Below are positions 1 through 22,259 of a DNA stretch of 64,000 bases, in pieces. The stretch covers positions 1 to 64,000 of the forward strand of contig NZ_NUGT01000035.1 of the NCBI RefSeq assembly GCF_002574545.1. The letters run 5' to 3'. Made by a program: the position numbers and the translations under genes. This stretch comes from Bacillus sp. AFS055030. GTDB taxonomy: Bacteria; Bacillota; Bacilli; Bacillales; Bacillaceae_G. The notes under the pieces were generated by a model. It ran no database searches. It was not told the origin of the DNA and was given only the letters and a program-made list of their open reading frames with translations. Positions within the stretch are counted from its first letter, which is position 1. The number at the start of each line of letters is the position of its first letter.

Positions 1-31
1 TACTTCCTCATAACAGGTTTATAAGGAAGTA
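1..31 (-). repeat. degenerate single copy related to the 52-bp repeat
   Basis: Read on the minus strand, 23 of 30 bases match the core of the 52-bp tandem repeat unit found at 20208-20820, including GTTATGAGGAAGTA against GTTTATGAGGAAGTA. The same stretch is also an inverted repeat (TACTTCCT at one end, AGGAAGTA at the other), so the likeness could partly come from that symmetry. The window edge cuts off the neighbouring sequence. Low confidence. Confidence 0.3.
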
Positions 32-100
32 AACCAGCTAAAATTTGAAAGTTCCTTACTCACGACCAATTAGCGTAGTTGAGAAGCTCGTTTTTCAACA

Positions 101-135
101 TAATAAATAAAAGGCCGTCATATAGACAGCCTTTT
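101..135 (-). terminator. intrinsic terminator of the MFS gene
   Basis: An 11-bp stem with one mismatch (AAAAGGCTGTC against GACGGCCTTTT) is followed on the minus strand by TTTATTTATT. It lies just past the stop codon of the MFS transporter. Confidence 0.8.
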
Positions 136-18689: not shown

Positions 18690-18833
18690 ACTTAAGAAAT
18701 AATCATATTTCCACGTTATAATACAGGAAGAAAAATCCATTTTTGTTGTTATTCAGTTACGATTGTAATCTTTCTGTAATGAACGTATTGAAGGTGCATA
18801 ATTTGAAATTATTTTTGACTTAGAGCTAAGTAA

Positions 18834-18960
18834 AAGAGGTTGTATCAAACCACTTAATTAAAAAACGTCAAATTAAAACGCAAGAATGCTGTTAAATCAA
18901 CATTCTTGCGTTTTGTTTATAAATTTCAAGGCTAAAATCTACCTTTTGGGACTGTCTCTT
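18834..18960. repeat. MITE-like stretch with a strong internal hairpin
   Basis: A perfect 14-bp stem (AAAACGCAAGAATG with CATTCTTGCGTTTT, 18874-18914) is flanked by imperfect inverted ends: AAGAGGTTGTATCAAA on the left and, reversed, AAGAGACAGTCCCAAA on the right, 11 of 16 matching. The ends resemble degenerate insertion-sequence termini, but no transposase or target duplication is visible. The hairpin alone could be a terminator for the SDR gene. Confidence 0.35.
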
Positions 18961-19006
18961 GATTTTTTTCCTTCATATATATAGAAGCGAAATAACATAA
19001 CTAGAT

Positions 19007-20104
19007 TTACTTAATTAATACATGCTTTTCTGTTACTGCCTTATTCACTTTATAATAATCTGTAATAACAGGAAGTATATCTTTAAAGTCCGGACATTTG
19101 ATACTTGTGTTTTGTAAATCAGTTAAAGTATTCATACAATCATATTCGGAATAACAATTAAAATAAGATATTACCTCTTTTTCAACTTTAAGTAAACGTC
19201 TAATGAAAGGAATGGAAAGGAGTGGATTAATTATTTTCATTGGAATAATTCCTACGGTAGTTTTGTTTAAGTAATAGGAAAGAAATTCTTTATATATATC
19301 TTGTACAAGGTAAGGAGAGGGATCTGTAATTTGATAAGTTTTGTTAACTCCGATTTTTGCATGACTCAAATAGTAAACAGCGTCAATTAAATAGTCGATT
19401 GGAATGAAATTGCAATATGCATTATCTTTACCTACTTGTGGTATAGGTAAATAGCGAAGTTTTGTGAAGAAGTTTAAAATGAAATATGGTCCATCAAATT
19501 TACTTGTCTCACCAGTTTCTGAATGACCAACTACAATTCCAGGCCTGATGATGGTGATTGGAAGTTGGGTTTTTAGCTTCTCAACTTCAATTTCGGCATA
19601 ATACTTCGTTTCTTCATAATAGTTTTTAAATGTTTGTCCCATTTCTAATTCATGTTCATAAATTCTTCCTTCACGAGTTCCCGACACATAGCTAGTACTA
19701 AAATAGGTGTAACGCTTCAAAAATTTCAACTTAAGTGCGAAATCATTTACGTTTATTGTTCCTTTCACATTTACTTCATATGCAATCTTTTTAGGCACTG
19801 CAAGGTCGTATATTGCAGCCAAATGAAATAAGTCTGTTATATTATTAATAAGTTCATTTTGAGTTATTAAATTAAGTCCAAAGTTTTTCTTAGTGATATC
19901 ACCAGTTAAAAGTTCTATTTTTAAAAGAGTATAATCTGGATATTTTTGATCTAATGTAAATAAAAAATCTCGGCATTGTTTTTCAGTATTAGGAAGAATG
20001 AGTAAATAAATTTTTTGAAAAGACATTTCATTATCAAGAATTTTAAGGAGTAAATGTTTTGAAATAAATCCGGGAAATCCAGTAATAAAGTACGTTCTTT
20101 CCAT
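19007..20104 (-). CDS. extended SDR-family NAD(P)-dependent oxidoreductase
   Basis: 365 residues with a Rossmann start ITGFPGFISKHLL (TGxxGxxG) and the catalytic Tyr and Lys in YYEETKYYAE. The layout (GDITKKNFGL, IIRPGIVVG, substrate-binding C-terminal half) is like NAD-binding 4 / male-sterility type reductases and atypical epimerases. Its substrate is unknown. I start it at ATG 20104, 7 bases after AGGTG, instead of the in-frame GTG 20113. It is isolated, with a long gene-poor region on both sides and the 52-bp repeat array upstream. Confidence 0.78.
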   Translation of the reverse strand: MERTYFITGFPGFISKHLLLKILDNEMSFQKIYLLILPNTEKQCRDFLFTLDQKYPDYTLLKIELLTGDITKKNFGLNLITQNELINNITDLFHLAAIYDLAVPKKIAYEVNVKGTINVNDFALKLKFLKRYTYFSTSYVSGTREGRIYEHELEMGQTFKNYYEETKYYAEIEVEKLKTQLPITIIRPGIVVGHSETGETSKFDGPYFILNFFTKLRYLPIPQVGKDNAYCNFIPIDYLIDAVYYLSHAKIGVNKTYQITDPSPYLVQDIYKEFLSYYLNKTTVGIIPMKIINPLLSIPFIRRLLKVEKEVISYFNCYSEYDCMNTLTDLQNTSIKCPDFKDILPVITDYYKVNKAVTEKHVLIK

Positions 20105-20207
20105 CTTAGTCACCTACTTTATGTAAATTAAACTTCTTTGTTTATTTTATTAAAGTGAAATTCATTTAATGTAATATTCTGTTCAATATTATTTTAAGAA
20201 ATTGCCT

Positions 20208-20820
20208 AAAAAGTACCGCATGAACCGTTTAAGAGGAAGTGAAATTTTAAATAGTGTCTGAAGAACCCCTTAAAAGGAAGTATAATTCATGATTTAACTT
20301 AAAAAGTACCGCATGAACCGTTTAAGAGGAATTAAAATGCAAGGAATAGCATAAAAAGTACCGCATGAACCGTTTAAGAGGAAGTATAATTCATGAAATA
20401 GCTTAAAAAGTACCGCATGAACCGTTTAAGAGGAATTAAAATGCAAGGAATAGCATAAAAAGTACCGCATGAACCGATTAAGAGGAAGTATAATTCATGA
20501 AATAGCATAAATAGTACCGCATGAACCGTTTAAGAGGAAGTAAAATGCAAGAAATAGTCTAAATAGTACCGCATGAACCCTTTAAGAGGAAGTAAAATGC
20601 AAGAAATAGCATAAAAAGTACCGCATGAACCGTTTATGAGGAAGTATAATTCATGAAATAGCATAAAAAGTACCGTATGAACCGTTTAAGAGGAAGTAAA
20701 ATGCAAGAATTAGATTAAATAGTATCTCAAGAACCCCTTAAAAGGAAGTATAATTCATGATTTAACTTAAAGAGTTTCACATGGCCCCGTATGGAAACTA
20801 AAGTTCAAGACTTAGCTCCC
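20208..20820. repeat. array of twelve 52-bp tandem repeats with alternating tails
   Basis: Unit starts: 20208 (41 bp, partly deleted), 20249, 20301, 20353, 20405, 20457, 20509, 20561, 20613, 20665, 20717 and 20769 (degenerate). Each full unit is exactly 52 bp with the head AAAAAGTACCGCATGAACCG, a core TTTAAGAGGAA and one of two tails: type A, GTATAATTCATGAAATAGC, or type B, ending AAAATGCAAGGAATAGC. Order from the second unit: A B A B A B B A B A. Units 20249 and 20717 are near-identical outer variants. 52 is not a multiple of three and stops occur in every frame, so it is not coding. Confidence 0.95.
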
Positions 20821-20851
20821 TAACTAATTGTGATTCCTTATGAGTTGCAAG

Positions 20852-20880
20852 AAAAAAGCTTGCCCATTCGGACAAGCCTT
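20852..20880 (-). terminator. nagP terminator
   Basis: On the minus strand GGCTTGTCC and GGGCAAGCT pair around GAAT with one G-T pair, then TTTTTTC. Confidence 0.82.
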
Positions 20881-20894
20881 AAAATCAATTACAA

Positions 20895-22259
20895 TTATTT
20901 TACTTGTTTTTTCAAGTCTTCAGCAACAAACTCTACGTTTGTACCAACTACTACTTGTACGTTTTTATCGTCTAATTTAATAACTCCACGAGCACCTGCT
21001 TTTTTAAGAAGTGCTTCATTTACTTTAGAAGCATCTTTTACTTGTAAGCGTAAACGAGTTGTACAGTTATCAATATTTGTTAAGTTTTCTTTTCCACCTA
21101 AAGCTTGTAGGTATAATGAATCACCAATTTCAGTTGTTACTTCATCAGTTTCAACTTCTTCGTCTTCACGACCTGGTGTTTTAATGTCAAATTTCTTAAT
21201 TGCGAAGTAGAACACGATAAAGTAAATTGCACCAAAGATTAAACCAATTAGAAGTAACAGAATCGGTTTTGTTGCAATATTGTAGTTCAGGATGTAGTCC
21301 ATGAAACCTGCTGAGAAAGTAAACCCATCTTTAATTCCTAAAGCATTTACGATACCCATTGATAAACCAGTTAAGATTGCATGGAATGTATATAGTACTG
21401 GAGCAATGAACATGAATGCAAATTCAATTGGTTCCGTAATACCTGTTAAGAAAGATGTTAATGCAAGTCCAATAAACATACCTGAAACAGTTTTACGTCT
21501 TTCTGGTTTCGCAGCAGCGATCATAGCAAATGCAGCGGCTGGAAGACCGAACATCATAATAGGGAAGAAACCAGTCATGAATGCACCAGCAGATTTGTCA
21601 CCAGCGAAGAATCTGTTTAAGTCACCGTGAACTAATTTACCAGCAGCATCAGTAAAGTCACCTAAGTTGAACCAGAAAATTGTATTTAATACGTGATGTA
21701 ATCCTAGTGGGATTAAAATACGGTTTAAGAAACCGAATACTGCGGCCCCGATTGGACCAATAGCAATAATCCAGTTACCAACTGAGTTAATTGCATCTTG
21801 AATTGTTGGCCATACATAACCAAATATACCTGCTAATACAAGCATCGTAGCTGATGTTATAATTGGAACGAATCGTCGTCCACTAAAGAAACCTAGCCAT
21901 TCAGGTAATTTAATACCACTGAAACGGTTGTAAAGAAGACCAGCTATAACCCCTGTAATAATACCACCAAGAGCAGCCATATTAATATCTTTATTTATCG
22001 TAGTTGTTCCTGCAGTTAATACAAAGTAACCGATTGCACCTGCAAGACCGGCGGCTCCATTTCCATCCTTTGAAATACCGATTGCAACACCGATAGCAAA
22101 GATTAATGGAAGATTAGAGAAAATTGCATTACCAGCAGCCGCCATAAACGGAATGTCTAGTAAATCTGGTTGTCCAAAGCGCAGTAAAAGTCCTGCTGCT
22201 GGAAGCACAGCGATTGGTAGCATTAATGCTTTACCAATGCGTTGTAAAAAACTAAGCAT
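20895..22259 (-). CDS. nagP: N-acetylglucosamine-specific PTS enzyme IICB
   Basis: 454 residues. The IIC membrane domain (to about 360) has [19 protein letters not shown] at the start and [12 protein letters not shown]; the IIB domain carries the phosphorylated Cys in NIDNCTTRLRLQV. It lacks an IIA domain, so it must borrow IIA from another protein, such as the IIA domain of PtsG encoded in this window. It imports GlcNAc as GlcNAc-6-P. A CcpA site and a NagR-like operator lie upstream, and the same operator sequence occurs before nagA at 50117, tying it to the nagAB pathway. Confidence 0.9.
   Translation of the reverse strand: MLSFLQRIGKALMLPIAVLPAAGLLLRFGQPDLLDIPFMAAAGNAIFSNLPLIFAIGVAIGISKDGNGAAGLAGAIGYFVLTAGTTTINKDINMAALGGIITGVIAGLLYNRFSGIKLPEWLGFFSGRRFVPIITSATMLVLAGIFGYVWPTIQDAINSVGNWIIAIGPIGAAVFGFLNRILIPLGLHHVLNTIFWFNLGDFTDAAGKLVHGDLNRFFAGDKSAGAFMTGFFPIMMFGLPAAAFAMIAAAKPERRKTVSGMFIGLALTSFLTGITEPIEFAFMFIAPVLYTFHAILTGLSMGIVNALGIKDGFTFSAGFMDYILNYNIATKPILLLLIGLIFGAIYFIVFYFAIKKFDIKTPGREDEEVETDEVTTEIGDSLYLQALGGKENLTNIDNCTTRLRLQVKDASKVNEALLKKAGARGVIKLDDKNVQVVVGTNVEFVAEDLKKQVK

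What the first reader, a model, noticed from the sequence alone, without database searches (positions are those of the whole stretch)
20208..20820. 52-bp tandem repeats with two alternating tail types
Seen: twelve units, ten of exactly 52 bp, share a 20-bp head and a core, but the last 20 bp are of two kinds that follow the order A B A B A B B A B A. The tails differ, yet both keep complementarity to the head: type A ends TTCATG, pairing with CATGAA of the head, and type B has ATGC, pairing with GCAT. That looks like a kept secondary structure and a 104-bp higher-order unit. Units 2 and 11 are matching outer variants, as if the array had defined borders. A diverged single copy may sit at 1-31, so the family may be dispersed. 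Not coding, no spacers, so not CRISPR. I know of no described element with this structure.
Basis: partly seen in the sequence, partly recalled or inferred. Interest (0 to 1): 0.72.

Follow-up and report, generated by a model that had tools for sequence, protein, structure and literature searches.

The report
Decayed 52-nt hairpin satellite array
This is one worn-out copy of a family of non-coding tandem repeats, always 52 bases long, scattered between genes in some Bacillus-like bacteria; the repeat class is already published, but here many copies ride inside small mobile-element-like pieces that sit against gene-end terminator signals.

Summary
The array is real: twelve units at 20208-20830, ten of the spacings exactly 52 bp. 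It is not a one-off. This genome (genus Gottfriedia) holds about 30 related loci, and the family also occurs in other Gottfriedia, in Robertmurraya, and singly in B. methanolicus. All 56 arrays with three or more units have modal period 52 although spacers differ widely. The shared core is a covarying hairpin (ACTTCCTCATGAACCNNTTATGAGGAAGT). This fits a published class, the constant-length 52-nt tandem repeats of Bacillus (PMC8161180), so the kind is known.

The A/B alternation is weak (P=0.04) and not conserved; orthologous arrays vary in length, are reduced, or are absent.

New here: many Gottfriedia arrays lie between inverted-repeat ends abutting rho-independent terminators, with the terminator duplicated in three cases and single in relatives at two of those sites. 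They look like modules of a terminator-targeted MITE; one such end is at window 1-105. The window array lacks these ends and is most likely a locally expanded, decaying member without essential function at this locus.

The parts
20208..20830 (+). 52-bp tandem array, twelve units, core AGTACCGCATGAACCGTTTAAGAGGAAGT, two spacer types
20253..20304 (+). left outer unit variant (GAACCCCTTAAAAGG)
20721..20772 (+). right outer unit variant, the match of the left one
20855..20880 (-). rho-independent terminator of the PTS gene, next to the array
20895..22259 (-). PTS EIIC/EIIB gene (context)
19007..20113 (-). NAD_binding_4 (fatty acyl-CoA reductase-like) gene (context)
1..105 (-). left end of a carrier element of the same family (end at 68-99, one hairpin core at 2-30), next to a terminator, cut by the contig end

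Best explanation
The array is a decaying member of the constant-length 52-nt tandem-repeat class of Bacillaceae. The family unit is a 29-nt hairpin-forming palindrome plus about 23 nt of spacer. Arrays grow, shrink and become uniform locally, probably by replication slippage, unequal exchange and gene conversion. In Gottfriedia the family is probably dispersed by a MITE-like carrier with ends CAGAGTGTTGAAA...TTTCAACACTCTG that inserts against rho-independent terminators and can duplicate the terminator. The window array has no such ends left and a broken palindrome, so it most likely persists as a neutral or selfish satellite between the PTS terminator and the next gene. Shown: membership, constant period, covarying hairpin in the family, turnover at the orthologous locus, decay here, terminator association of the carrier ends. 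Inferred: the amplification mechanism, active transposition, and absence of function at this locus.
For: Own genome: about 60 matches to the array, 66 core matches with 0 in the reversed control, 127 cores at about 34 loci. Period: 304 of 344 spacings exactly 52; modal 52 in 56 of 56 arrays; spacer identity 0.53 within the genus against 0.33 shuffled, while an orthologous flank shows 66 indels per 334 substitutions. Hairpin: covariation 0.139 against 0.069 shuffled (0 of 500), slid versions 0.031-0.073; typical unit z -4.74. Turnover: orthologous array in G007, G012, G006, G003, reduced in G010, remnant in G011, absent in G005, G009, G001. Carrier: ends abut terminator-like hairpins in 17 of 29 places against 72 of 1160 control positions, Fisher P=4e-13; single terminator in relatives against duplicated terminator around inserts. 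Decay: 6.1 of 11 stem pairs, lowest of 56, median 9.0. Known class: PMC8161180.
Against: The constant period across very different spacers argues for some constraint, so 'no function' may be wrong for the family. The window array lacks recognisable carrier ends, so its own dispersal route is inferred from relatives. No transposase was found, and the terminator duplication is seen only around some elements. Cores were collected with patterns built on the inner stem, so inner-stem conservation is partly by selection; the outer pairs, which carry the covariation, were not fixed by the pattern.
Confidence: 0.72

Rival explanations
1. The arrays are functional DNA: phased binding sites for a nucleoid-type protein, 52 bp being five helical turns, so that the protein sits on one face of the DNA. 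Proposed for the class, without the phasing figure for 52, in PMC8161180.
For: Period held at 52 while spacers diverge; palindromic core as for a dimeric site.
Against: The arms covary instead of keeping a fixed word; the array is lost or reduced in close relatives and decayed here. No protein is known.
Confidence: 0.25
2. The arrays are transcribed into structured RNA that acts as a small RNA, a protein sponge, or a 3'-end protector of upstream mRNA.
For: Covarying hairpin, conserved G-T pair next to the loop, reported transcription in B. coagulans (PMC8625621).
Against: No excess of G-T over A-C mismatches elsewhere in the stem; no clear orientation relative to neighbouring genes, upstream gene same strand in 25 of 41; the window units do not fold.
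Confidence: 0.2
3. REP-like elements spread by a Y1/RAYT transposase that recognises the hairpin.
For: Extragenic palindromes in high copy; one intact Y1 gene in this genome.
Against: No intact Y1 gene in G006, G007 or G012, which are rich in arrays, and several in G004, which has no match to the core.
Confidence: 0.04
4. A purely local tandem duplication with no wider family.
For: Strong uniformity within each array.
Against: About 30 loci in the genome, other species and genera, constant period.
Confidence: 0.01

Closest known systems
52-nt constant-length tandem repeats of Bacillus (Subirana and Messeguer 2021, PMC8161180; transcription in PMC8625621)
   Same: Non-coding, several families per genome, unit 52 nt (51-53), mostly 4-10 copies, changing between strains; short words and their reverse within the unit. 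Published B. coagulans and B. litoralis units hold a related hairpin, TTGTCnTTCATcACCCTTATGAAnGACAA.
   Different: The paper's main text does not name Gottfriedia luciferensis, reports no sequence conservation between species, and describes neither covarying hairpins nor carrier ends at terminators.
BOX elements of Streptococcus pneumoniae (boxA-boxBn-boxC; PMC3049150)
   Same: Bounded intergenic repeat with a variable number of internal tandem modules, predicted folded RNA, regarded as non-autonomous mobile.
   Different: Different sequence, module and host; a terminator target with terminator duplication is not described in the passages read.
BrickBuilt MITE of Porphyromonas gingivalis (PMC4596501)
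   Same: Minisatellite inside a MITE whose leader and tail carry short inverted-repeat ends; intergenic.
   Different: 23-nt unit, unrelated sequence, different phylum.
REP/BIME elements with RAYT transposases
   Same: Clusters of extragenic imperfect palindromes (own knowledge).
   Different: Strict 52-bp direct period here; no co-occurrence with Y1 transposases.

Membership tests
52-nt tandem repeats of Bacillus | repeat length 52 (51-53) nt in arrays of at least four units | tested here: met
52-nt tandem repeats of Bacillus | several arrays with different unit sequence but the same length in one genome | tested here: met
52-nt tandem repeats of Bacillus | non-coding, intergenic | tested here: met
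52-nt tandem repeats of Bacillus | length and presence vary between related genomes | tested here: met
52-nt tandem repeats of Bacillus | transcribed | not testable with these tools
   no RNA-seq at hand; reported for B. coagulans
MITE (window array itself) | terminal inverted repeats around the array | tested here: not met
   no carrier end found near 20208-20830
MITE (carrier of other arrays in this genome) | terminal inverted repeats | tested here: met
   CAGAGTGTTGAAA / TTTCAACACTCTG
MITE (carrier of other arrays in this genome) | empty site and target duplication | tested here: inconclusive
   terminator duplicated at L079 and L071, intact plus decayed copy at L095; single terminator in relatives at L079 and L095; no duplication at L068 and L078
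MITE (carrier of other arrays in this genome) | matching autonomous transposon | not tested
   none seen among 30 TIR places, but not searched systematically
CRISPR | unique spacers between repeats | tested here: not met
   spacers nearly identical within an array
REP/RAYT | associated Y1 (RAYT) transposase | tested here: not met
   no co-occurrence in 13 genomes

The most novel reading that the evidence does not exclude
The 52-nt satellites, at least in Gottfriedia, are the expandable inner module of a BOX-like mobile element that uses rho-independent terminators as insertion targets and duplicates the whole terminator, sharing ends and target with a second, unrelated-looking element; the fixed 52-bp period and covarying hairpin reflect a constraint of copying or of protein loading.
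Probability: 0.45. Interest if true: 0.65.

Novelty: new member of a known kind. Interest (0 to 1): 0.42.

Why it matters
The 52-nt repeats are a published puzzle: constant length, variable sequence, no known function or origin. Here the length constancy is set against the indel rate of an orthologous flank, a covarying hairpin core is shown across two genera, and a vehicle is proposed. A vehicle that targets terminators would explain dispersal and make origin and function testable. The window array itself adds little, being the most decayed of those compared.

Tried and rejected
Rfam: nothing above threshold in eight array- or carrier-bearing loci and only a weak unrelated match near the window array. 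Promoter scan of the array: one match, below the shuffled mean. Y1/RAYT transposase: no co-occurrence. Plasmids and phages: no blastn match. Gene-orientation bias: none clear. Strand-specific G-U excess in the stem: none overall. Text search for the core word: listed papers are unrelated. Search for paired opposite ends with a gene between: only non-coding-size pairs of about 420-460 bp or weak pairs.

Full report
What is there. Window 20208-20830 holds twelve units with core starts at 20212, 20253, 20305 and then every 52 bp to 20773. Two spacer types follow the order A B A B A B B A B A; 10 of 252 orders alternate as much, so P=0.04. The outer units at 20260 and 20728 match each other. The array lies between a PTS EIIC/EIIB gene with its terminator (20855-20880, minus strand) and a fatty acyl-CoA reductase-like gene, both on the minus strand.

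It belongs to a dispersed family. The same genome gives about 60 matches and 66 hits to the common core, with none for the reversed control. After fetching 40 stretches, a weight matrix finds 127 cores at about 34 loci, some of them single weak matches. Many arrays end at contig ends, so the assembly breaks in them; the copy at window 1-31 is one of these. The genus is Gottfriedia: contig lengths equate G007 with G. luciferensis CH01. The exact core also occurs in Robertmurraya and Bacillus sp. FJAT-29790, there in arrays of period 52, and in single copy in B. methanolicus. In a sample of 399 genomes of the order, multi-copy presence is confined to the genus; Robertmurraya may not have been sampled.

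Constant period. Of 344 spacings, 304 are exactly 52 and 27 are 51 or 53. All 56 arrays with three or more units have modal period 52. Spacers are 53% identical between Gottfriedia arrays and 43% between Gottfriedia and Robertmurraya, against 33% for shuffled ones, while an orthologous intergenic flank collects about one indel per five substitutions (66 to 334). Length is therefore held more tightly than sequence. Homogenisation within arrays and common descent could contribute but do not obviously explain it alone.

Hairpin. In 67 array consensus cores a 13-pair helix is 85.5% paired; covariation is 0.139 against 0.069 in shuffles (0 of 500) and at most 0.073 when slid. Two measures (pairs with a double change, further pair types) do not exceed shuffles, and the rows are related, so this is good but not absolute evidence. 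The window array is the exception: 6.1 of 11 pairs, lowest of 56, with units folding at z -0.24 and +0.12. Its counterparts at the same locus in relatives average 8 to 10 of 11 pairs.

Turnover. The orthologous spacer carries five and seven recognisable units in G007 and G012, contig-broken arrays in G006 and G003, about two units in G010, a remnant in G011, and none in G005, G009 or G001. Whether the array is old and repeatedly lost or was gained more than once is not resolved.

Carrier. Many other Gottfriedia arrays lie between inverted-repeat ends with a conserved left border unit. These ends abut terminator-like hairpins in 17 of 29 places against 72 of 1160 control positions. At the relA-like locus G006 and G002 have one terminator, this genome has an array element between two identical copies, and G007, G011 and G012 have a different element between two copies. 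At the L078 locus single terminators in G003, G006 and G007 contrast with the second element between two copies in G008, G010 and G011; the array element of this genome has one copy there. At the L095 locus relatives have one copy, and this genome has an intact and a decayed copy around the array element. No transposase was identified. The window array has no such ends. Several Robertmurraya siralis arrays share another right flank, so the carrier may differ by genus.

Known or new. Constant 52-nt tandem repeats in Bacillus are published, with transcription reported in B. coagulans and nucleoid or RNA roles proposed (PMC8161180, PMC8625621). Of 27 published consensus units, 13 fold with z below -2 on at least one strand, a lenient count since the better strand was taken; units of B. 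coagulans and B. litoralis hold a hairpin related to the present core. The window array is therefore a new member of a known kind. The covarying core and the terminator-associated carrier are additions that I did not find in the papers read; the library holds open-licence papers only, so prior description elsewhere cannot be excluded.

Noticed in passing
L151, L152, L153, L292, L293, L294: A second non-coding element of several hundred bp (GTTGATTGGA...GACTCCTATGGGAT...GAGACCCCGCAGG) with the same type of ends sits at terminators with the terminator duplicated; no Rfam match in L151-L153.
   Followed up: partly
window 18832-18968: Another dispersed repeat holding the hairpin CGCAAGAATGCTGTTAAATCAACATTCTTGCG, also in contigs C2, C11, C15 and C29 of this genome, in places followed by the carrier's inverted-repeat end.
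   Followed up: no
L203, L208, L228: Robertmurraya siralis arrays share a conserved right flank (CCTCATGCATCCCTA...), unlike the Gottfriedia ends.
   Followed up: no
L073, L080: Terminators flanked on both sides by the carrier's inverted-repeat end, giving one long extended palindrome.
   Followed up: no
G004:C29:292233-303620: Four Y1 transposase matches within about 11 kb in a genome without matches to the core.
   Followed up: no
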